The translations under genes were made by a program, and so were the position numbers. A stretch of 64,000 nt of DNA from Pseudomonas alcaligenes (lineage in GTDB: Bacteria; Pseudomonadota; Gammaproteobacteria; Pseudomonadales; Pseudomonadaceae), in assembly GCF_041729615.1 (NCBI RefSeq), contig NZ_CP154874.1:749001-813000 (forward strand), given 5' to 3'. Under the pieces are notes generated by a model. That model was not told where the DNA came from, did no database searches, and worked only from the letters and a program-made list of their open reading frames with translations. Of this stretch, positions 10,254 to 64,000 are shown in pieces. Within the stretch, counting starts at the first letter, position 1. Every line of letters begins with the position of its first letter.

Positions 10254-11498
10254 TCACTCGTAGCGCAAGGCCTCGGCCGGCTGCGTGCGTGACGCCCGCC
10301 AGGACGGGTAGAGGGTGGCGAGGAAGCTCATGCTCAGCGCCGCGCCGCAGATCAGCAGCACGTCCAGGCCGCGCAGGTCAGACGGCAGGCTGCTGATGAA
10401 GTACACATCCGAGCTGAAGATGTGCGCGCCGCTGGCCTTCTCCAGCCAGGCCACCCAGCCGCTGACATTGAGCGCGACCGTCACGCCCAGCACGCCGCCG
10501 ATCAGGGTGCCGATGCAGCCGATCACCGTGCCCTGCACCATGAAGGTGGCCATGATCTGCCCCGGCGTGGCGCCCAGGGTACGCAGGATGGCGATGTCGG
10601 CGCGCTTGTCGGCGACCACCATGATCAGCGTGGCGATGATGTTGAAGGCGGCCACCGCGATGATCAGCAGCAGCAGCAGGCCGATCATGGTCTTCTCCAT
10701 CTGCATGGCGCTGAACAGGCTGCCCTGGGTGCGGGTCCAGTCGATCGCCTTGAAGCCGGCGCCCAGTTGCGTGGCGATGGCGGCCGACACCTGCGGCGCC
10801 TGGTACAGGTCCTTGAGGGCGATGCGCACGCTCTGCACCTGCCCGTCCTGCATGCGCTGGATGCTGGAGGCATCGGCGATATGGATCAGCGCCAGGCTGC
10901 CATCCAGCTCGGCGCCGACCTTGAACACGCCGACCACCGACAGGCGCAGCATGCGTGGGGTGATGCCGCCGGCGGCCTTGCTCGCCTCGGGGACGATCAG
11001 GGTCAGCTTGTCGCCGACACTCAGGCGGAAACGGCGTGCGCTGATCTCGCCGATCACCACACCGAACTCGCCGGCCTTGAGGTCTTCCAGGCGGCCCTGA
11101 ACCATGTGCCGGCCGATGATCGAGACCTTCTGCTCCTCCGCCGGGTCGATGCCGTTGATCTGCACCGGCTGCATGCTGCCCTTGTAGGAGAACATGCCCT
11201 CCAGCTCGGCGAAGGGCGCGGCGCCGGTAACCTGCGGGTGCTGCATCGCGGTGGCGGCCACCGCCTGCCAGTCGTCCAGCGGACGGTCGGCACTCAGGGC
11301 GGCATGCGGCACCATGCCGAGGATGCGCGAGCTCATCTCCTTCTGGAAACCGTTCATCACCGACAGCACCACGATCATCGCCAGCACGCCCAGGCCTAAG
11401 CCGATCATCGAGGTCAGCGAGATGAAGGAGATGTAGTGGTTGCGCCGCTTGGCCCGGGTGTAGCGGGTACCGACGAAAAGCGAGAGTGGTCTGAACAT
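10254..11498 (-). CDS. lolE: Lipoprotein-releasing ABC transporter permease (LolE position)
   Basis: Permease of the LolCDE complex, which extracts outer-membrane lipoproteins from the inner membrane and passes them to LolA. 414 aa: one N-terminal TM helix ([25 protein letters not shown]), a large periplasmic MacB-like domain, and three C-terminal TM helices ending with the EALRYE tail. It is a close paralogue of the gene at 12176 and follows lolD by one base. LolC and LolE cannot be told apart firmly from sequence alone; the symbol follows the usual lolC-lolD-lolE order. Confidence 0.9.
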   Translation of the reverse strand: MFRPLSLFVGTRYTRAKRRNHYISFISLTSMIGLGLGVLAMIVVLSVMNGFQKEMSSRILGMVPHAALSADRPLDDWQAVAATAMQHPQVTGAAPFAELEGMFSYKGSMQPVQINGIDPAEEQKVSIIGRHMVQGRLEDLKAGEFGVVIGEISARRFRLSVGDKLTLIVPEASKAAGGITPRMLRLSVVGVFKVGAELDGSLALIHIADASSIQRMQDGQVQSVRIALKDLYQAPQVSAAIATQLGAGFKAIDWTRTQGSLFSAMQMEKTMIGLLLLLIIAVAAFNIIATLIMVVADKRADIAILRTLGATPGQIMATFMVQGTVIGCIGTLIGGVLGVTVALNVSGWVAWLEKASGAHIFSSDVYFISSLPSDLRGLDVLLICGAALSMSFLATLYPSWRASRTQPAEALRYE

Positions 11499-54918: not shown

Positions 54919-57477
54919 ATGAACAGCACAGACGCCTCCACTGACAAGCAACGACTGATCGTCGTCGGCAACGGCATGGTCGGCCACCACTGCGTCGAGC
55001 AACTGCTCGCGGGCGGCGCCCTGGCGCACTACCGTATCGAGGTGTTCGGCGAGGAGGCGCAGCGCGCCTACGACCGCGTGCATCTGTCCGAGTACTTCGG
55101 CGGCCGCGATGCCGAGTCCCTGGCCATGAGCGCCGCCTCCCTCTATGAAGCGGAAGGCCTGACCCTGCACCTGAGCAGCCAAGTGCTGGAGATCGACCGC
55201 GCCCGGCGCGAGGTGGTCACCGCCCAGGGCCGCTTCGGCTACGACAAGCTGGTGCTGGCCACCGGCTCCTACCCCTTCGTGCCGCCGATCGAAGGCGCCG
55301 AGGGCGACTCGCGCCTGGTCTACCGCACCCTGGACGACCTCGACGGCATCCGTGCCGCGGCCAAGGGCAAGCGCCGCGGCGTGGTGGTCGGCGGCGGCCT
55401 GCTCGGCCTGGAAGCGGCCAATGCGCTGAAGTCCCTGGGCCTGGAAGCCCATGTGGTGGAATTCGCCCCGCGCCTGATGCCGGTGCAGCTGGACGACTTC
55501 GGCGGCGCGGCGCTGAAGCAGCGCATCGAGGACCTGGGCGTCGGCGTGCACCTGTCCAAGGCCACCCAGAGCATCAGCGCCGGCAGCGAGTACCGCTACC
55601 GGATGAACTTCGCCGGCGATGACTTCCTGGAAACCGACCTGATCGTGTTCTCCGCCGGCATCCGCCCGCAGGACGCCCTGGCCCGCGCCTGCGGCCTGGA
55701 GCTGGGCCCGCGTGGCGGCATCGCCATCAACGACCAGTGCCTGACCAGCGACGAGCACATCTTCGCCATCGGCGAATGCGCGGCGTGGAACGGCAGCATC
55801 TTCGGCCTGGTCGCCCCCGGCTACCAGATGGCGCGCCTAGTGGCGGCGCAGCTGTGCGGCCAGGAGGGCCAGCCCTTCCTCGGCGCGGACATGTCGACCA
55901 AGCTCAAGCTGCTCGGCGTGGACGTCGGCTCCATCGGCGATGCCCACGGCGCCATGCCCGGTGCCAAGAGCTACCGCTACATCGACGAGGCCACGGCCAG
56001 CTACCGCCGTCTGGTCGTGTCCGCCGATGGCAAGCAGGTACTCGGCGCCGTGCTGGTCGGCGACAACAGCTACTACGACACCCTGCTGCAGTACGCGCAG
56101 AACGGCATCCAGCTGCCGGAAGATCCGGCCAGCCTGATCATGCCCGCCGGCGAAGGCGCCCCGGCGCTGGGCGCCGACGCCCTGCCGGACAGCGCCACCA
56201 TCTGCTCCTGCCACAACGTCAGCAAGGGCGCGATCTGCGCGGCCATCGACGGCGGCTGCAGCGACATCGCCGGGATCAAGGCCTGCACAAAGGCGGCCAC
56301 CGGCTGCGGCGGCTGCGCGGCGCTGCTCAAGCAGGTTGTCGAGCACGAGCTGACCGCCCGCGGCGTGGAAGTCGACAAGAGCCTGTGCGAACACTTCGCC
56401 TACACCCGCCAGGAGCTCTACCACTTCGTCCGCGTCGAAGGCATCGAGAGCTTCGAGGAACTGCTGGCCAAGCACGGCAAGGGCCACGTCGGCTGCGACA
56501 TCTGCAAGCCGGCGGTGGGCTCGATCCTCGCCTCCTGCTGGAACCAGCCGATCATGAACCCGTCGCTGGTGCCGCTGCAGGACACCAACGACACCTTCAT
56601 GGCCAACATGCAGAAGAACGGCACCTACTCGGTGGTGCCGCGCATCCCCGGCGGCGAGATCACCCCGGACGGGCTGATCGCCATCGGTGCGGTGGCGAAG
56701 AAGTACGACCTCTACACCAAGATCACCGGCGGTCAGCGCATCGACCTGTTCGGTGCTCAGCTGCACGAGCTGCCGGACATCTGGGGCGAACTGATCGCCG
56801 CCGGCTTCGAGACCGGCCACGCCTACGGCAAGTCCACCCGCACGGTGAAGAGCTGCGTCGGCAGCACCTGGTGCCGCTACGGCGTGCAGGACAGCGTGAA
56901 GATGGCCCTGGACATCGAGCACCGCTACAAGGGCCTGCGCTCGCCGCACAAGCTCAAGTTCGCCGTCTCTGGCTGCACCCGCGAGTGCGCCGAGGCGCAG
57001 AGCAAGGACATCGGCGTGATCGCCACCGAGAACGGCTGGAACCTCTACGTATGCGGCAACGGCGGCATGCGCCCGCGCCACGCCGAGCTGTTCGCCACCG
57101 ACCTGGATGACGCCACCCTGATCCGCTACATCGACCGCCTGCTGATGTTCTACATCCGCACCGCCGACAAGCTGCAGCGCACCTCGGTGTGGCGCGAGTC
57201 GCTGGAAGGCGGCCTGGACTACCTCAAGGCCGTGGTCATCGACGACAGCCTGGGCCTGGCCGCCGAGTTGGAGGCGCAGATGCAGCTGGTGGTCGACCGC
57301 TACGAATGCGAATGGGCCAACGCGCTCAAGGACGAGGAGAAGCTCAAGCGCTTCCGCACCTTCGTCAACGAGCACGGCGGCGATCCGGACATCCACTTCG
57401 TCCGCGAACGCGGCCAGCGCCGCCCGGCGCGCGAAGACGAACTGCAACTGATCCCCGTGACCGAGGAGGCCGTCTGA
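54919..57477 (+). CDS. nirB: Assimilatory nitrite reductase (NADH), large subunit
   Basis: 852-aa cytoplasmic enzyme reducing nitrite to ammonium. N-terminal FAD/NADH domain (VVGNGMVGHHCVEQLL, GGGLLGLEAANALKSLG), a BFD-like [2Fe-2S] domain with CSCHNVSKG and CTKAATGCGGC, then the nitrite/sulphite reductase part holding siroheme and [4Fe-4S] via SCVGSTWCRYG and SGCTRECAEAQSKD. Ends within the nirD start (TGATG). Confidence 0.97.
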   Translation: MNSTDASTDKQRLIVVGNGMVGHHCVEQLLAGGALAHYRIEVFGEEAQRAYDRVHLSEYFGGRDAESLAMSAASLYEAEGLTLHLSSQVLEIDRARREVVTAQGRFGYDKLVLATGSYPFVPPIEGAEGDSRLVYRTLDDLDGIRAAAKGKRRGVVVGGGLLGLEAANALKSLGLEAHVVEFAPRLMPVQLDDFGGAALKQRIEDLGVGVHLSKATQSISAGSEYRYRMNFAGDDFLETDLIVFSAGIRPQDALARACGLELGPRGGIAINDQCLTSDEHIFAIGECAAWNGSIFGLVAPGYQMARLVAAQLCGQEGQPFLGADMSTKLKLLGVDVGSIGDAHGAMPGAKSYRYIDEATASYRRLVVSADGKQVLGAVLVGDNSYYDTLLQYAQNGIQLPEDPASLIMPAGEGAPALGADALPDSATICSCHNVSKGAICAAIDGGCSDIAGIKACTKAATGCGGCAALLKQVVEHELTARGVEVDKSLCEHFAYTRQELYHFVRVEGIESFEELLAKHGKGHVGCDICKPAVGSILASCWNQPIMNPSLVPLQDTNDTFMANMQKNGTYSVVPRIPGGEITPDGLIAIGAVAKKYDLYTKITGGQRIDLFGAQLHELPDIWGELIAAGFETGHAYGKSTRTVKSCVGSTWCRYGVQDSVKMALDIEHRYKGLRSPHKLKFAVSGCTRECAEAQSKDIGVIATENGWNLYVCGNGGMRPRHAELFATDLDDATLIRYIDRLLMFYIRTADKLQRTSVWRESLEGGLDYLKAVVIDDSLGLAAELEAQMQLVVDRYECEWANALKDEEKLKRFRTFVNEHGGDPDIHFVRERGQRRPAREDELQLIPVTEEAV

Positions 57478-57827
57478 TGAACACCGCACTCAACCTCGAA
57501 GCCAGCTGGCAACCGCTGTGCAGCGCCGCCGACCTGGTGGCGGGCTCCGGCGTGGTCGCCCTGCTGGATGGCCAGCAGGTGGCCCTGTTCTACCTGCCGC
57601 AAACCGAGCAGCAGGTGTTCGCCATCGGCAACTGCGACCCCAAGTCCGGCGCCAACGTGATCGGCCGCGGCATCCTCGGTCACCTGCAGGGTGAGCTGGT
57701 GATCGCCTCGCCGCTGTACAAGCAGCACTACCGCCTGCGCGACGGCAGCTGCCTGGAGTACCCGGACCAGCAGCTGCCGGTTTGGCCGGCGCGGCTCAAC
57801 GGCGAGCAGGTGGAAATCTTCCGCTAA
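57477..57827 (+). CDS. nirD: Nitrite reductase (NADH) small subunit
   Basis: 116-aa Rieske-fold protein beginning MNTALNLEASWQPLCSA, with IGNCDPKSGANVIGRGILGH. The Rieske cluster ligands are missing, as in all NirD, so it has a structural role with NirB. ATG overlaps the nirB stop by one base. No nasA or cobA follows. Confidence 0.95.
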   Translation: MNTALNLEASWQPLCSAADLVAGSGVVALLDGQQVALFYLPQTEQQVFAIGNCDPKSGANVIGRGILGHLQGELVIASPLYKQHYRLRDGSCLEYPDQQLPVWPARLNGEQVEIFR

Positions 57828-57962
57828 CGGCCTTTGCTGCACAGGGTAACGGGGCGCAGTAGATGACTGCCCCCGACAAACCATCACGCCGCCACAGGGG
57901 TGGTCTTGTTCTCGTCGAAGGCGAACGCCTAACATCCGCCGACGCCCTCGACGAGCCCGCCC

Positions 57963-58964
57963 ATGCGCGAACGCACCATCGCCAGCCACTTCATCCGTGC
58001 CGCCCTGCGCGGCGCCGAGCGCCAGGGCCGCGACTGTGGCGGCCTGCTGCGCGAGGTCGGCATCCAGCCGGCACTGCTCGACGAGCCGCGCGCGCGCCTC
58101 GACCCGCAACAATTTTCGCAACTGATCCAGGGCCTGTGGGCGCTGCTCGACGACGAGTACATGGGCTTCGGCGCCATCCCCAGCAAGCGCGGCACCTTCG
58201 CCATGATGTGCCACGCCATCATCCACTGCCACAGCCTGGAAAAGGCCCTGGTACGCGGCATGCTGTTCTACGGCCTGTTCCCCGAGGCGCCGCGCGTGGC
58301 CCTGCAGCGCGAGGGCGAACGGGTGCGCCTGACCTTGGACAGCTCGGCCCTGTGGGACCCGGACCACTTCCTCACCGAGAGCCTGCTGGTGATCTGGCAC
58401 CGCCTCGGCAGCTGGCTGATCGGCCAGCGCATCCGCCTCGAAGAAGCCAGCTTCGCCTACCCCGAGCCGGCCCACAGCGGCGAGTACGACCTGCTGTTCC
58501 CCTGCCCACGGCGTTTCGAGGCGGGCAGCACCAGCCTGCTGTTCCACACCCGCTACCTGGGCATGCCGCTGCTGCAGGACGAGCGCACCCTCAAGCAGTT
58601 CCTCGAACACTCGCCGGCCGACCTGCTGGCCCGCCCCGACGGCGGCGACAGCCTGACCAGCCGCATCCGCCGCCTGCTCGGCCGCGACTGCGCGCACTGG
58701 CCGGACCTGGAAAGCGTCGCCGCGCAGCTGCACATCAGCCCGCAGACCCTGCGCCGCCACCTGCGCGAGGAAGGCAGCAGCTTCCAGGAGCTCAAGGACC
58801 ACCTGCGCCGCGACCTGGCCATCTACCACCTGGGCCGCGACGAACTGTCGATCAACGCCCTCGCCGAACAGCTCGGTTTCTCCGAGCCCTCGGCCTTCCA
58901 CCGCGCCTTCAAGAAATGGACCGGGCTCACCCCCGGCGCCTACCGCGCCCACCAGGACGGCTAG
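57963..58964 (+). CDS. AraC-family transcriptional regulator (arabinose-binding-like N terminus)
   Basis: 333 aa. N-terminal part (about 20-210) matches the Arabinose_bd regulator family (FGAIPSKRGTFAMMCHAIIHCHSLEKAL). C-terminal double HTH: SVAAQLHISPQTLRRHLREEG and SINALAEQLGFSEPSAFHRAFKKWTGLTPGAYR. Target genes are not visible; neighbours are nirD and an M23 peptidase, neither of the usual catabolic type. Confidence 0.9.
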   Translation: MRERTIASHFIRAALRGAERQGRDCGGLLREVGIQPALLDEPRARLDPQQFSQLIQGLWALLDDEYMGFGAIPSKRGTFAMMCHAIIHCHSLEKALVRGMLFYGLFPEAPRVALQREGERVRLTLDSSALWDPDHFLTESLLVIWHRLGSWLIGQRIRLEEASFAYPEPAHSGEYDLLFPCPRRFEAGSTSLLFHTRYLGMPLLQDERTLKQFLEHSPADLLARPDGGDSLTSRIRRLLGRDCAHWPDLESVAAQLHISPQTLRRHLREEGSSFQELKDHLRRDLAIYHLGRDELSINALAEQLGFSEPSAFHRAFKKWTGLTPGAYRAHQDG

Positions 58965-59001
58965 CCGCACGCCCCAACACCCGCCGCAAGGACGCGCCTC
59001 C

Positions 59002-59535
59002 ATGAACCTGAAGAAACTCCGCAAACGTCACCTGCTGCTCGGCCTCGCGCTGGCCTGGCTGCTGGCCCCGGAATGGCCAAAAATCCCCGTGCAGGGTGCC
59101 AGCGCCCGCGACTGGCACCCACAGAGCTTCTGGTTCGAGCCCTGGGGCCGCTCCGGCACGCACAAGGGCATCGACATCTTCGCCGCCACCGGCACTCCGC
59201 TCGTCGCCCCCAGCTACGGCCTGGTGCTGTTTCGCGGCGAAATCCAGATGGGCGGCAAGGTCATGCTGATGCTCGGCCCGAAGTGGCGCCTGCACTACTT
59301 CGCCCACCTCGACAGCTACAGCGCCCTGCCCGGCCAACCGGTGCGACCCGGCAGCCTACTCGGCACAGTCGGCAGCACCGGCAACGCCCAAGGCAAGCCA
59401 CCCCATCTGCACTACTCGGTCGTCACCCTGTTGCCCTATCCCTGGCGCTGGGACGACAGCAGCCAGGGCTGGAAGAAAATCTTCTACCTGGACCCGAGCG
59501 CGATACTGGGCGCCCCCCCGATGGACAGCCGCTAG
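59002..59535 (+). CDS. M23-family metallopeptidase
   Basis: 177 aa with an N-terminal TM/signal anchor (HLLLGLALAWLLAPEWP). LytM-type Zn site: HKGID (His and Asp ligands), and PPHLHYSVV. Likely a periplasmic peptidoglycan endopeptidase or its regulator. The last host-type gene before the cassette array. Confidence 0.9.
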   Translation: MNLKKLRKRHLLLGLALAWLLAPEWPKIPVQGASARDWHPQSFWFEPWGRSGTHKGIDIFAATGTPLVAPSYGLVLFRGEIQMGGKVMLMLGPKWRLHYFAHLDSYSALPGQPVRPGSLLGTVGSTGNAQGKPPHLHYSVVTLLPYPWRWDDSSQGWKKIFYLDPSAILGAPPMDSR

Positions 59536-59668
59536 GCGAGCCAGTAGCGTCGCAGATGAAACAGATATCGGCCCTGCCCCGCAGCCTGTCTTTTTCCAAT
59601 CGGCAAAGCCGTCGTGTTTGCCGTAGCAGCCACAAGGGAAAACAGGGGCTTAGCCAAGGGCAAGGAAT

Positions 59669-59729
59669 GTTATGCGACACAAGTGGCGGAAAAAATTACG
59701 CCATTTGTGTCGTCTACTTATAGTTAGGT
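59669..59729 (+). other. Possible attI- or attC-like left boundary of the cassette array
   Basis: 13-bp hairpin GACACAAGTGGCG / CGCCATTTGTGTC (one G-T pair, 10-base loop) followed by a core-site sequence GTTAGGT (59723-59729; fits GTTRRRY). No matching RYYYAAC on the left and no extrahelical base, so it is not a regular attC. The first cassette would begin at 59724. Confidence 0.35.
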
Positions 59730-59734
59730 TACCA

Positions 59735-60475
59735 ATGAATATCGAGCAAGAATTAGATTGGGTAAAACAATCAAAGAACATTGATTGCCTTGATCTTGAA
59801 GTGTGCTTTCAGTTGCACGATAACTTTTATATTGGCGATCCAAATAGCCATGAGCAATTCCAAGACGAGAAATATCGTGAGACTGTCAAACTACCTCCCT
59901 TTGAACGCGTTGTTCCAATGATGGCAAGAACAAGTGAAGCCATTGGACACACGAATGAACTCGCCTCTTACTACAAAAATCTCATTGAGAAATCGGTAGG
60001 TCGAAACAAGCCATTCAACGAGATAAGGCAGTATTTTTGGTTGCGACTTTGGCTCTGGAATACGGAAGAGGATGTACATGTTTCCTTTCCATGGTATGAC
60101 AGCCTATCTGAAATGCAGCAGCTTTTTTCATGGTTAAAGGGCAACCCTGAAGAGCCATATATAGATATGGATCAGGGATGGCAAATAGAGGCCGTTCGCA
60201 TTGGAGAGAATGTTCATATAAGACAATCCGATCCTGACTGCGATGAAGAATATGCAAACGTATCTGTCCCGTTTGAGGTATTTTTTAATAAAGCAAACGA
60301 AGTAGAGAATAGAGCACAGCAAATAATCACTAATCTATCAAAAGAGCTTGGTGTTGATGTATGGTCAAAATATCTCCAAGATGCCAGATTTGGTACCGAG
60401 AAATGGCAACCTAACAAAAAAATCAACCGGACAAAAAAAGCCGATGGCTTTTTTAGCCGGTTATTTAAGCGTTAG
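59735..60475 (+). CDS. Cassette-encoded protein of unknown function (cassette 1)
   Basis: 246 aa, acidic, from MNIEQELDWVKQSK. Base composition is far more AT-rich than the host genes. Central part Trp-rich (YFWLRLWLWNTEEDVHVSFPWYD). No family recognised; could be an immunity- or defence-type protein but nothing shows it. The start at 59735 follows AGG of the core site GTTAGGT by 6 bases; the upstream in-frame ATG at 59672 lies outside the cassette. The C-terminal 22 residues and stop codon are encoded by its attC. Confidence 0.7.
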   Translation: MNIEQELDWVKQSKNIDCLDLEVCFQLHDNFYIGDPNSHEQFQDEKYRETVKLPPFERVVPMMARTSEAIGHTNELASYYKNLIEKSVGRNKPFNEIRQYFWLRLWLWNTEEDVHVSFPWYDSLSEMQQLFSWLKGNPEEPYIDMDQGWQIEAVRIGENVHIRQSDPDCDEEYANVSVPFEVFFNKANEVENRAQQIITNLSKELGVDVWSKYLQDARFGTEKWQPNKKINRTKKADGFFSRLFKR

Positions 60476-60477
60476 AA
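60409..60477 (+). repeat. attC site 1 (69 bp)
   Basis: R'' ACCTAAC and R' GTTAGAA. Between them AAATCAACCGG pairs with CCGGTTATTT, leaving one unpaired C (extrahelical base), then a long A/T-rich hairpin. Different family from the other three. Confidence 0.8.
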
Positions 60478-60483
60478 ACCATC

Positions 60484-60876
60484 ATGGACAACTGGTACAG
60501 CACAATCGAATACCAAATCCATATCACCGAAAAACTAGAGGCGCTTGGAGAAACAAAGTACAACCGCGAGGCTTATGAGTTCGCGCTTGAGGCATACCAG
60601 TGTGCACCTGAATATCATGAAAACATTCCCGCGCCGCCTGCTAATCTTGGGCTCACCTACCATGTAAGCGCCTTCAATTTTGCACACTGCTATGTCCTTC
60701 ACGCCAAGGAAGTATTTGAAGCTCCCAAAGAAACACTGAGCTCTTGGGGCATATCTTCATCAATGGATATTGGTGAAATTGTTTATGGCTTAGTCCGCAT
60801 TGGCTTGCTGGACCAAGGCCCCGAAGACAAAAAAGAGCAGTTTGAAGGCTTATTTTTAATCAACGATGTGCTGTGA
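60484..60876 (+). CDS. Minf_1886-like cassette protein (cassette 2)
   Basis: 130-aa small cytosolic protein. YNREAYEFALEA (26-37), YHVSAFNFAHCYVLHAKEVFE (about 59-79) and SSWGISSSMDIGEIVYGLVRIGLLD (86-110) resemble the Minf_1886 domain family, which has no known function. AT-rich. Starts 13 bases after the core site at 60471. Confidence 0.6.
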   Translation: MDNWYSTIEYQIHITEKLEALGETKYNREAYEFALEAYQCAPEYHENIPAPPANLGLTYHVSAFNFAHCYVLHAKEVFEAPKETLSSWGISSSMDIGEIVYGLVRIGLLDQGPEDKKEQFEGLFLINDVL

Positions 60877-60880
60877 TGCC

Positions 60881-60957
60881 TTCTAACTACCGGTTCAAGC
60901 CGCTCGCTTCGCTCACTCGGGACCGGCTAAAGCCGGCCCCTTAACCAAACGTTAGGC
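60881..60957 (+). repeat. attC site 2 (77 bp)
   Basis: R'' TTCTAAC, R' GTTAGGC. Stem arms GGTT-C-AAG and CTTAACC leave the extrahelical C; the terminal part carries CCGGC/GCCGG and GCTCGCTTCGCTC repeats. Long form typical of Pseudomonas chromosomal integrons. Confidence 0.93.
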
Positions 60958-60963
60958 ACTCCG

Positions 60964-61491
60964 ATGACAGTACCAGCAGCCCGTGAGAATCTAATCGAGG
61001 CGCTTTTGCGAGCAGACGAATTGTCTCGTAATGCACGAGCGGAGCGAATTGAGTGGCTAGCTCAACATATTTCAAATACTGGAGCGATAACAGGTGAGAT
61101 CACCGTCCTCCACATGATGGAAGAAGCAAGACTTTGCTTTATTTCCGGCCATTTCATTGGCGCATTACTTCTTGCCACTTCTTTCATAGAACAAACCCTT
61201 AGCGAAGAGCTTGAAAGTTTCGCATCAGCACAAGAACGACGGACTTTAGAGCTAATGATCAAGTCCGCACGCAATCATCTGCCACTGCCAAGTGATCTGT
61301 TGGATCGCACTGACCACCTCAGGGAACTACGTAATCCTTTTACGCACCGCAAGGCCCATGACCACCCTCATTCATTTGGTGCAAGGTTCTTAGCAGGCAA
61401 GGCACACCCCGTCTCAATTCTTGAGGAGGATGCAAAGCTGGCTATGGCAGTTATGTATGAGTGGTTTCAACGCACGCTGCGGAGCGCCTAA
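60964..61491 (+). CDS. HEPN-like protein with RNxxxH motif (cassette 3)
   Basis: 175 aa, all-helical in appearance. FISGHFIGALLLATSFIEQTL (59-79) is a HEPN-like helix and RNPFTH (123-128, in LRELRNPFTHRK) gives the RNxxxH element of HEPN ribonucleases. Such proteins act in toxin-antitoxin and anti-phage systems or as RNA-binding helpers. There is no antitoxin or MNT partner next to it. The stop TAA is part of attC R''. Confidence 0.6.
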   Translation: MTVPAARENLIEALLRADELSRNARAERIEWLAQHISNTGAITGEITVLHMMEEARLCFISGHFIGALLLATSFIEQTLSEELESFASAQERRTLELMIKSARNHLPLPSDLLDRTDHLRELRNPFTHRKAHDHPHSFGARFLAGKAHPVSILEEDAKLAMAVMYEWFQRTLRSA

Positions 61492-61562
61492 CAACTGGTT
61501 CAAGTCGCTCGCTTCGCTCACTCGGGACCGGCTAAAGCCGGCCCCTTAACCAAACGTCAGGG
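61486..61562 (+). repeat. attC site 3 (77 bp), degenerate R'
   Basis: R'' GCCTAAC matches; R' reads GTCAGGG rather than GTTRRRY, which should weaken recombination. Inner part nearly identical to site 2. Confidence 0.88.
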
Positions 61563-61573
61563 AAAACATTAAA

Positions 61574-61939
61574 TTGCACCGCGCAGCTTCAATCCTACTC
61601 CTCGCATTACCTCTCTGCGCCATCTCAGCCGAAAAGCGCTGTGGCTGGCTAGAAAATCCCACACCAGCAAACCTATGGCTAATTGATAGCGACTCTGAGT
61701 GGACGATATCAACACAAGGTCGAGGTTTTATAGACGAAGCCTCAATGGACAAAATCCCAACAATTGACCAAAAGGAATTTGTCCGTACAAATGGAAATTA
61801 CGGCTTCTCATGCGTCTGTCTTAACGTCAAAACCAACAAAAAACGCTCAGAAATATTAGAAATTTACGGCGGGGAGCAACTGCTATTAAAGCAATGCTTA
61901 GAGGACTCGAAAATTAACAAAAAAACACCTCTGCGCTGA
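61574..61939 (+). CDS. DUF4087-like exported protein (cassette 4)
   Basis: 121 aa from a TTG codon at 61574, with signal peptide LLLALPLCAISA. The mature part RCGWLENPTPANLWLIDSD, EWTISTQG and FVRTNGNYGFSCVC follow the DUF4087 pattern of small secreted cysteine proteins with unknown role. No ATG is available before the signal peptide, so TTG is the best start; SD weak. Confidence 0.65.
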   Translation: MHRAASILLLALPLCAISAEKRCGWLENPTPANLWLIDSDSEWTISTQGRGFIDEASMDKIPTIDQKEFVRTNGNYGFSCVCLNVKTNKKRSEILEIYGGEQLLLKQCLEDSKINKKTPLR

Positions 61940-61943
61940 AGTT

Positions 61944-62020
61944 CCCTAACAAATGATTCAAGTCGTTCGCTTTGCTCACTCGGGACCGGCTAAAGCCGGC
62001 CCCTTAACCAAACGTTAGAC
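61944..62020 (+). repeat. attC site 4 (77 bp), last in the array
   Basis: R'' CCCTAAC, R' GTTAGAC. Inner part as sites 2 and 3 with a few changes (GATT, GTTCGCTTTG). Host-like GC-rich sequence resumes within about 30 bases after it. Confidence 0.92.
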
Positions 62021-62149
62021 GCAAGAGCAATATCGTTTTCCAGCATCGAACCAAGGAATAAACCCCTCGACTCGTCGCGGCACGCGCTCCCCACCTTCGC
62101 CTCTGCCAACGCCTAATCTCCATCGAGAGCCACCGCCCCGGAGTCGCCC

Positions 62150-62557
62150 ATGTCACCCTCACTGCTCGCGCTGCTCGGCTTCATCACCTGGACCCTGCTG
62201 CTCCTGCTGCTGATGGAGGCCATCCGTTCCCAACTGGTGCTGAGCGGCAAGGTCGCCGCCAACGGCTTCAATCCCGAGAACTCCAACCTGTCGCCCTTCA
62301 TGCAGCGGCTCGCCCGGGCCCATGCGAACTGCCTGGAGGGGCTGCCCGTCTTCGGCGGCCTGCTGCTACTCGCGGTGGTGGCCGGCCAGGCCGTAGTCAC
62401 CGACCCGCTCGCCTATGGGTTGCTGGCAGCCCGTATCGTGCAGTCCGTCATCCACCTCGCCTCCCTTTCGGCGGCGGCCGTCACCGCGCGCTTCGCGGCG
62501 TTCGGCGTGCAGCTCGGCATTGCCCTGTACTGGGCGGTCGCGCTGTTGCTGGCCTAG
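62150..62557 (+). CDS. MAPEG family membrane protein
   Basis: 135 aa with four TM helices. The family motif RAHANCLEGLPVFGGLLLLAV and RIVQSVIHLASL are present. Members include glutathione-dependent membrane enzymes; the bacterial role is uncertain. First host gene after the array. Confidence 0.88.
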   Translation: MSPSLLALLGFITWTLLLLLLMEAIRSQLVLSGKVAANGFNPENSNLSPFMQRLARAHANCLEGLPVFGGLLLLAVVAGQAVVTDPLAYGLLAARIVQSVIHLASLSAAAVTARFAAFGVQLGIALYWAVALLLA

Positions 62558-62559
62558 GG

Positions 62560-62805
62560 ATGATCACGGCAGTGCGCATCCTGGCGACCCTGCTCGGCTA
62601 TCTCCTGGCCCTGGTGCTGGTGGCGGCGCTCGCCCTGTTCGGCGTACTGGTGCTGGCCGGGCCGCACGCCGGTATTTTGCCCGGCTGGCTCGAGCCCGCG
62701 GTTCTGGTGCTGGGCTGGCTGGCAGTGCTGCTCTTGCCGCTGTGGCTTGCCCGATGGATCTGGCGCGGCCTGGGTGGAACCAGGCGCGGCAGGACTCCAC
62801 GATAA
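62560..62805 (+). CDS. Small two-helix membrane protein, unknown
   Basis: 81 aa, with two hydrophobic helices (about 7-32 and 46-65) and a basic tail. It starts 2 bases after the MAPEG stop. No family recognised. Confidence 0.6.
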   Translation: MITAVRILATLLGYLLALVLVAALALFGVLVLAGPHAGILPGWLEPAVLVLGWLAVLLLPLWLARWIWRGLGGTRRGRTPR

Positions 62806-62830
62806 GCGTGGTACGCCAGAGGGACAGATG

Positions 62831-63256
62831 ATGAAGGCTCGCCTTTCCGTGATTACGCTGGGCGTTGATGACCTGGAGCGCTCGCTGCGGTTCTACCGGG
62901 ACGGACTAGGGCTGCTGACGGACGGCATCGTCGGCCAGGAGTTCGAGCATGGCGCGGTGGCCTTCTTCGCGCTGCAGTCCGGCCTGCGCCTGGCCCTGTG
63001 GCCGCGCCGGAGCCTGGCCCGGGACTGCGGGCTGCCGCTCGGCCCCGGCAGCCCGACGAATTTCTCGCTGGGGCACAACCTGGCCAGCCGCGCCGCGGTG
63101 GATGCCCTGATGGCACGGGCGCAGGCGGCCGGGGCACGCATCGTCAAACCCGCACAGGACACCTTCTGGGGTGGCTACGCCGGGTACTTCCAGGACCCGG
63201 ACGGGCATCTCTGGGAGCTGGTGTGGAACCCGCAGTGGCTCCCCCAGGACGACTGA
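62831..63256 (+). CDS. VOC family protein (glyoxalase-like)
   Basis: 141 aa, one vicinal-oxygen-chelate fold: RLSVITLGVDDLERSLRFYRDGLGL at the N terminus and FQDPDGHLWELVWNP at the C terminus. Metal-dependent enzymes of varied function; not specific here. GAGGGA upstream fits the ATG at 62831 better than the one three bases earlier. Confidence 0.87.
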   Translation: MKARLSVITLGVDDLERSLRFYRDGLGLLTDGIVGQEFEHGAVAFFALQSGLRLALWPRRSLARDCGLPLGPGSPTNFSLGHNLASRAAVDALMARAQAAGARIVKPAQDTFWGGYAGYFQDPDGHLWELVWNPQWLPQDD

Positions 63257-63329
63257 GCGCCCCGGTGGCGCACGAAGCTGCCTTACGCTCTCACGCCCTC
63301 TCTGCTGAGCGGTAGAGGGGTCGCCGCCA

Positions 63330-63983
63330 CTAGTGCGGCGCCCTGGTAGTGCGCAGGTAGGGCAGCTTGATGTCGATCTCGCCGTACTGCTCGCGGGCCT
63401 GCTGGTCGTTGAGGGCGAGCGCGACTATCACGTCCTGGCCTACCGCCCAGTTGGCCGGGGTGGCCAGCGGCACGTTGTAGGTCAGCTGCAGGGCGTCGAG
63501 GGCGCGCAGCACTTCGGCGAAGTTGCGGCCGACCGACATCGGGTAGGTCATGGACAGCTTGAGCTTCTTGTCCGGCCCGATGATGAACACAGAACGCACC
63601 GTGGCGGTGTCCGCGGCGGTGCGCCCATCCGGCAGGTAGGCCTCGGCCGGCAGCATGTCGAAGGCCTTGGACACCGCCAGGCCCTCGTCGGCGATGATCG
63701 GGAAGTGCGCCGGGGCGCCACAGAAGGACTCGATGTCACCCTTCCACTGGCGGTGGGCCTCGGCGCCATCCACCGAAACGCCGATGACCTTGGTGTTGCG
63801 CTTGCGCCACTCCTCCGCCAGCTGGGCGACCACGCCGAACTCGGTGGTGCAGACCGGGGTGAAATCCTTGGGATGGGAGAACAGGATGGCCCAGCCCGAG
63901 CCTATCCACTCATGGAAACGGATCGGGCCCTGGTCGGTTTCGGCGGCAAAGTCGGGCACGGGATCGTTGATGCGCAAGGTCAT
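63330..63983 (-). CDS. 1-Cys peroxiredoxin (Prx6 type)
   Basis: 217 aa. Peroxidatic Cys45 in FSHPKDFTPVCTTEFG; long Prx6-type C-terminal domain with YPMSVGRNFAEVLRALDALQLT. Only other Cys is in SFCGAP, so no regular resolving Cys. Detoxifies H2O2 and organic peroxides; LsfA of Pseudomonas is the nearest type and is induced with sulphur limitation. Upstream bases 63984-64000 are too few to find a promoter. Confidence 0.93.
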   Translation of the reverse strand: MTLRINDPVPDFAAETDQGPIRFHEWIGSGWAILFSHPKDFTPVCTTEFGVVAQLAEEWRKRNTKVIGVSVDGAEAHRQWKGDIESFCGAPAHFPIIADEGLAVSKAFDMLPAEAYLPDGRTAADTATVRSVFIIGPDKKLKLSMTYPMSVGRNFAEVLRALDALQLTYNVPLATPANWAVGQDVIVALALNDQQAREQYGEIDIKLPYLRTTRAPH

Positions 63984-64000
63984 GCTGGCGGTCTCCCTGG

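What the first reader, a model, noticed from the sequence alone, without database searches (positions are those of the whole stretch)
59724..62014. Integrase-less gene cassette array (CALIN) in a Pseudomonas chromosome
Four attC sites (69, 77, 77, 77 bp) with paired R boxes and extrahelical C, four same-strand AT-rich genes, host genes on both sides and no intI. The three 77-bp sites share an almost identical core and resemble Pseudomonas chromosomal-integron repeats. Cargo is uncharacterised.
Basis: partly seen in the sequence, partly recalled or inferred. Interest (0 to 1): 0.8.

Follow-up and report, generated by a model that had tools for sequence, protein, structure and literature searches.

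The report
Integrase-less integron outposts with own attI
This Pseudomonas chromosome holds a small gene-cassette array that has no integrase gene of its own but starts with a copy of the integron docking site attI behind a predicted promoter, and it is likely still restocked by the single integrase encoded elsewhere in the same genome, so that one enzyme would serve several arrays.

Summary
The four attC sites are real (94.9, 94.5, 87.7 and 24.6 bits; model trained on the genome's other arrays; nothing else in 64 kb). Such heads occur in 28 of 298 genus genomes, in eight of them at two or three places; 28 of 37 intI-less copies show the promoter motif, and a few keep decayed first codons of intI. 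In a strain with 98% identical flanks the same head carries other cassettes, the change lying between GTTAG of attI and GTTAG of the last attC. The head sits at this locus without intI in seven genomes. Cores of intI-less and intI-linked attI match within genomes (exact p 7e-5); upstream DNA does not (p 0.12). Best reading: an integron platform that lost its integrase and is likely served in trans. Against: 20 of the 28 genomes lack a good intI match, and nothing has been tested at the bench.

The parts
59522..59550 (+). predicted cassette promoter Pc (TGGACA, 17 bp, TAGCGT), overlapping the end of the M23 peptidase gene
   Evidence: position; motif in 25 of 29 orphan heads against 0.16 of 29 in shuffles, in 3 of 8 further divergent ones. 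Activity not tested.
59585..59622 (+). two diverged copies of the TGTCGC(T/G)TTT repeat that heads share between promoter and attI
   Evidence: alignment of heads; positions
59661..59727 (+). attI copy (67-bp core) with inverted repeat (59675-59712) and crossover box GTTAG at 59723-59727
   Evidence: 94% to the attI beside intI over 70 bp; the 36-bp hairpin occurs only at these two places in the genome with up to 3 mismatches; folds with z -4.5
59735..60475 (+). cassette 1 ORF, 246 aa, family of hypothetical proteins
   Evidence: no Pfam match; 49 homologues, the named ones all 'hypothetical protein'
60409..60477 (+). attC 1 (69-bp type)
   Evidence: 24.6 bits, E 7e-4
60484..60876 (+). cassette 2 ORF, 130 aa, resembles the Minf_1886 family
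   Evidence: TIGR04138, 51.8 bits, below its cut-off of 60
60881..60957 (+). attC 2
   Evidence: 94.9 bits
60964..61491 (+). cassette 3 ORF, 175 aa, probably HEPN-like
   Evidence: 44 homologues, one named Cthe-2314-like HEPN by a source; RNPFTH resembles the HEPN RxxxxH motif (recalled)
61486..61562 (+). attC 3
   Evidence: 94.5 bits
61574..61939 (+). cassette 4 ORF, 121 aa, DUF4087
   Evidence: PF13316, 111 bits
61944..62020 (+). attC 4, last full site
   Evidence: 87.7 bits
62017..62058 (+). decayed start of an ORF-less cassette known from other arrays
   Evidence: 81% over 43 bp, E 6e-7

Best explanation
The window holds a cassette array that begins with a copy of the genome's attI behind a predicted cassette promoter, has no integrase gene of its own, and is likely emptied and refilled in trans by the full-length IntI encoded 2.6 Mb further along the same contig. 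Shown by sequence: homology of the head to the intI-linked attI, absence of intI at the locus, a different set of cassettes behind the same head in a near-identical strain with both borders at GTTAG, decayed intI codons in some sister heads, closer match of attI cores within genomes than between them. Inferred: each such head is what stays of a complete integron after its intI body is lost; promoter and attI were kept by selection; IntI from the remaining gene cuts and joins at them. In this genome one intI would then serve its own attI (one cassette) and this array, and perhaps the two arrays that start with a second kind of head. The origin of that second head, and how attI cores stay alike, are open.
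For: Full-length intI, 526.7 bits over a cut-off of 265, aligned over residues 8-320 of 321 with the solved integron integrase 2a3v. Head = attI copy. P. alcaligenes MB-090714: flanks 98.2 and 98.3% identical, head 99%, no cassette shared, change bounded by GTTAG on both sides, IntI 100% identical to own. The same at array d. NBRC 14159 and RU38D: same orphan head, different first cassette. The head stands at this locus without intI in seven genomes, so the exchange most simply came after the local intI was lost. Promoter motif in 28 of 37 orphan heads. Decayed intI start codons, best z 6.5. attI core matching within genomes, exact p 7e-5, upstream p 0.12. Closely similar cassettes in orphan and intI-linked arrays.
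Against: No experiment. 20 of 28 genomes with type-1 heads have no intI match at 1e-60, and 18 of those 20 none at 1e-20 with this IntI, so heads persist without an integrase. BMS12 and GOM6 lack a complete intI yet count in the core-matching test. 4 of 11 orphans are not closest to their own genome's attI; G166a is furthest from its own of 12. Upstream DNA comes near the line in the centred test (p 0.054). 9 of 37 heads did not show the motif (3 of them could not be anchored). The window's four cassettes match none of the other cassettes compared, so no exchange between arrays of this genome was seen. Type-2 heads lack the promoter motif.
Confidence: 0.72

Rival explanations
1. A frozen relic: an old integron that lost intI and whose cassettes no longer move; promoter and attI are just slow to decay.
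For: 18 genomes keep heads with no intI match at 1e-20; in 10 of 14 divergent heads no attC was found downstream (with a model tuned to this genome's sites); in GOM6, whose intI is deleted inside, the attI core at this locus is wrecked. CALINs have been proposed to be degraded integrons (PMC9024848, passages).
Against: Different cassettes in two strains with 98% identical flanks and 99% identical heads; attI core matched to the resident attI.
Confidence: 0.13
2. The array was swapped as a block by homologous recombination with DNA of another strain, without IntI acting at this locus.
For: attC sites and flanks offer homology; closely similar cassettes occur in several species.
Against: Both borders lie at the GTTAG crossover boxes, at two separate loci, while tracts of homologous recombination would end anywhere in the flanks. 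It would also still need another strain in which cassettes had moved behind the same intI-less head.
Confidence: 0.1
3. A CALIN made by cassette insertion at a chance genomic attG site.
For: Insertion at attG sites is described (passage in PMC12444791).
Against: The head is homologous to the integron's attI well beyond a core box and shares a promoter motif and repeats with heads at other chromosomal places.
Confidence: 0.03

Closest known systems
CALIN (cluster of attC sites lacking an integron integrase; IntegronFinder, PMC9024848, passages seen)
   Same: attC cassettes in a row without a neighbouring integrase
   Different: starts with an attI copy and a predicted cassette promoter, which IntegronFinder does not look for outside class 1 (same paper)
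CALIN with its own attI in Shewanella prophage M16-3 (PMC9892861, passages seen)
   Same: a complete integron and an integrase-less array, each starting with the same attI
   Different: there one prophage; here chromosomal loci in many Pseudomonas genomes, one locus shared by seven genomes, with a promoter motif and strain-to-strain cassette exchange
Sedentary chromosomal integron
   Same: intI, attI, 77-bp attC family, cassettes of mostly unknown function at the 3.43-Mb locus
   Different: cassettes are spread over four loci and only one of them has intI
Delta-attI-type cassettes of class 1 and 2 integrons (PMC12901181, abstract and first part of the discussion seen)
   Same: attI sequence outside its usual place, recombined by IntI1
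   Different: there attI pieces lie downstream of the ORF as part of a cassette; here a whole head stands upstream of an array
Xanthomonas CALINs at conserved loci (PMC12444791, passages seen)
   Same: intI at one locus, CALINs at other conserved loci
   Different: no attI at their heads is mentioned in the passages I saw

Membership tests
CALIN | at least two attC sites | tested here: met
   four sites
CALIN | no integron integrase gene nearby | tested here: met
   none in the 20-kb locus L012; the single match over the cut-off lies at 3.43 Mb
Complete integron | intI beside attI | tested here: not met
Complete integron | attI at the head of the array | tested here: met
   94% to the intI-linked attI over 70 bp; recombination activity not tested
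Complete integron | cassette promoter Pc | tested here: inconclusive
   conserved motif like PcW TGGACA-17-TAAGCT of class 1 (PMC2791841, passages); no transcript data
CALIN from attG insertion | host sequence with only a short core box before the first cassette | tested here: not met
   head homologous to attI and to other heads
Platform served in trans by IntI | cassettes change at an intI-less attI | tested here: met
   own against MB-090714 at two loci; by sequence comparison only
Platform served in trans by IntI | change depends on the distant intI | not testable with these tools
   needs a gene removal

The most novel reading that the evidence does not exclude
In the Pseudomonas alcaligenes group the integron is a distributed system: one integrase gene serves several promoter-attI platforms scattered over the chromosome, each made by losing its own integrase, each kept expressed and refillable, and their attI cores evolve in concert with the attI beside the integrase.
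Probability: 0.57. Interest if true: 0.78.

Novelty: new variant of a known kind. Interest (0 to 1): 0.68.

Why it matters
CALINs are about as common as complete integrons (2961 against 2760 in PMC9024848, passages) and have been proposed to be degraded integrons. If some carry an attI and promoter that current software does not look for, they would be working platforms rather than debris, and a genome would have several places where a new cassette can be expressed. The case also makes testable how one integrase and several scattered attI sites stay matched.

Tried and rejected
attG-made CALIN: rejected, the head is homologous to attI well beyond the core box. End of a transposable element: the TGTCGC repeats and the left edge of conservation suggested it; the edge turned out to be a promoter-like motif that lies inside intI in complete copies, and a few orphans keep decayed intI codons. 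Empty site: P. guryensis has the M23 gene followed by another gene (PpiC-like by eye, no call) and no array; the right flank was sought in ten relatives: in the six whose left flank I had placed (G118, G028, G013, G012, G027, G148) it lies elsewhere, in the other four I did not place the left flank, so no clean empty site was found. attI as hairpin: 89% of cells paired over 40 distinct cores, 1 of 500 column shuffles does as well; weak, since the sequences are related. Rfam: nothing in 57000-64000. A first attC pattern script found nothing because its cut-off was too strict. The matching test was repeated without the conspecific strain and without the divergent G166 pair, since that outlier column lowered the permuted mean.

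Rows dropped before counts: the 8 most divergent orphan heads were left out of the 29 (3 of them have the motif, 3 could not be anchored). One search used 20 heads chosen for having the motif; six others were removed as likely orthologues, and two that stayed (G220, G105) still look related. One search used 11 orphans of 8 genomes (MB-090714 and G166 left out). In one search several weak attC matches, one of them in array d (24.4 bits), were not entered in the cassette table, and cassettes were cut only where 61-2499 bases lay between sites. G240:C333 and the head in L174 were not searched for attC.

Full report
What was claimed and what is there. A covariance model trained on 12 attC sites of the genome's other arrays finds the four and nothing else in 64 kb at E up to 10. 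GC falls to 40-52% in the array against 65-71% around it. No intI is beside it.

The rest of the genome. The window is part of a single 4,091,487-bp contig. That contig has one match over the cut-off to the integron integrase model, full-length and open, at 3,427,937-3,428,878 (526.7 bits); its protein aligns over residues 8-320 of 321 with the solved integron integrase 2a3v. Beside it lie an attI and one cassette. Sites of the window's type also occur in two more arrays, at about 352-360 kb and 2,521-2,529 kb, with 16 sites each in the table (one more weak match in the second). So the genome has four cassette loci and one full-length integrase.

The head of the window array. The DNA before the first cassette is a copy of the attI beside intI: 94% over 70 bp. 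Its 36-bp hairpin occurs at just these two places in the genome with up to 3 mismatches. The two other arrays share a different head with each other, 83% over 101 bp. That type-2 head was found in 2 of 298 genus genomes, own and BMS12, two copies each, and once in P. alcaligenes MB-090714; none of these five copies has intI beside it.

Spread. In a sample of 298 genomes of the genus, 28 (own included) match the type-1 head, eight of them at two or three places. Seven copies have intI or a piece of it directly upstream; no intI was found beside the others whose loci were examined. The attC model finds sites behind 21 of 22 better conserved type-1 orphan copies (the exception is G266b) and behind 4 of 14 divergent ones.

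What the head consists of. Aligned orphan heads are conserved from a motif TRGACA-N17-TARNNT to GTTAG. The motif is in 25 of 29 orphan heads, against a mean of 0.16 of 29 in shuffled sequence (maximum 2 in 200 rounds), and in 3 of 8 more divergent heads. I defined the motif after looking at these sequences, and some heads are orthologous, so this is not a clean probability. Over 20 heads chosen for having the motif, columns 41-100 bp upstream of it are at the random level (0.376 against 0.379). In 10 of 12 intI-linked copies a like motif with an 18-bp spacer lies 223 bp before the crossover, inside the start of intI, as the class 1 Pc does (PMC2791841, passages seen). I read it as the cassette promoter; this is a prediction.

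How such heads arise. Of 25 orphan heads compared with the intI start, one is clear: L177 of strain PDM15 keeps decayed first codons of intI (z 6.5); G266a (3.4), G118a (2.8) and G185a (2.8) are weaker, and the window's own head gives only z 1.6. BMS12 shows an earlier stage: its intI match ends after 117 codons while motif, attI and array are in place. GOM6 has an internal deletion in intI, G185 three intI pieces. The best reading is that the intI body is lost and the promoter-attI head stays.

Is the platform used? P. alcaligenes MB-090714 has the same locus: 56551-59727 is 98.2% and 61947-64000 98.3% identical to the window and the head is 99% identical, but no cassette is shared and there are seven attC sites against four. 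Left of GTTAG in attI and right of GTTAG in the last attC the two agree; the last attC itself differs. The same holds at array d: flanks 98.5 and 98.0%, two sites against 16. NBRC 14159 and RU38D share an orphan head at the window's locus and differ in the first cassette right after GTTAG. The locus carries the promoter motif without intI in seven genomes: own, MB-090714, NBRC 14159, RU38D, BMS12, PDM15 (with another attI core) and GOM6 (core wrecked). The integrase was therefore gone here before own and MB-090714 parted, and most simply before all seven did; the exchange came later, so an integrase acting from elsewhere is the simplest agent. MB-090714 encodes an IntI identical to own; NBRC 14159 has no match in its draft at 1e-20.

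Matched attI cores. For 11 orphans in 8 genomes, identity of the 67-bp core to the intI-linked core of the same genome is 0.948 against 0.904 over all 40,320 relabellings (exact p 7e-5). For the 110 bp upstream it is 0.604 against 0.598 (p 0.12; 0.054 after centring). Own is the best match for 7 of 11. Two of the genomes (BMS12, GOM6) no longer have a complete intI. G166, whose intI-linked attI is divergent, was left out there; its orphan matches its own attI worst of 12. Recent duplication should have matched the upstream DNA too, so concerted evolution of the core, by gene conversion or by selection for the resident IntI, is the likelier reading; the route is not known.

Results against. 20 of the 28 genomes with type-1 heads have no intI match at 1e-60, and 18 of those 20 have none at 1e-20 with this IntI. 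Heads thus outlive the integrase, and many of them may be relics. Of 14 divergent heads 10 have no attC that this model sees.

Shared cassettes. Of 270 cassettes cut out, similar ones link orphan and intI-linked arrays: BMS12 type-2 orphan and PDM15 intI-linked (98.7% over 299 nt), and the first cassettes of a G194 orphan and of the PDM16 intI-linked array (92% over 236 nt). The window's four cassettes match none of the others at that threshold.

Cargo. Cassette 4 is DUF4087. Cassette 2 is Minf_1886-like, below cut-off. Cassette 3 has 44 homologues, one named HEPN-like, several in Xanthomonas. Cassette 1 has 49 homologues, the named ones all 'hypothetical protein'. The best PADLOC match is E 0.024.

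What is known. A CALIN with its own attI is on record for one Shewanella prophage (PMC9892861, passages). [quoted passage not shown] Xanthomonas CALINs at conserved loci are described, with no attI at their heads in the passages I saw (PMC12444791); Shewanella CALINs likewise (PMC9229058, passages). Searches of the held library listed no paper whose title or abstract start describes attI-headed CALINs across a bacterial genus; the library lacks most subscription journals, including early Pseudomonas integron papers (one looked for and not held).

Verdict. A real array and more than an ordinary CALIN: an integrase-less platform with its own attI, likely worked in trans. New variant of a known kind; activity untested.

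Noticed in passing
L219, L220, L099, L097, L214, L088, L089, L090, L215, L222; remnant at window 62017-62058: An ORF-less cassette of about 239 nt (longest ATG ORF 33 aa in 11 of 12 copies checked, 57 aa in one) recurs in intI-linked and orphan arrays, four times as the first cassette behind attI. It holds an inverted repeat GTTATTTGTG/CACAAATAAC; the consensus fold is 2.8 sd better than column shuffles; no Rfam match but tRNAs in the three loci scanned.
   Followed up: partly
G000:C1:351824-351924 and 2529449-2529579; L093, L094, L225: A second kind of array head (ATGCCTAYCCCTAGGCATGTCGTATAAACACTAGTTAG) with no intI beside it in the five copies seen and without the promoter motif; its cognate integrase, if any, was not found.
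   Followed up: partly
L091 (Pseudomonas sp. BMS12), L223 (GOM6), L231/L235/L236 (G185): Three stages of intI loss: truncated after about 117 codons, internal deletion, three pieces with stops.
   Followed up: partly
L053:6423-6833 and 10427-10837: The same cassette stands twice in array d of this genome, 99.5% identical over 415 nt.
   Followed up: no
   Followed up: no
DNA upstream of heads in G220, G105, G240, G214: Several orphan heads sit just behind a repeat like GGCAGAGGTCGGCCAAAAGCAGAC, perhaps a favoured neighbourhood.
   Followed up: no
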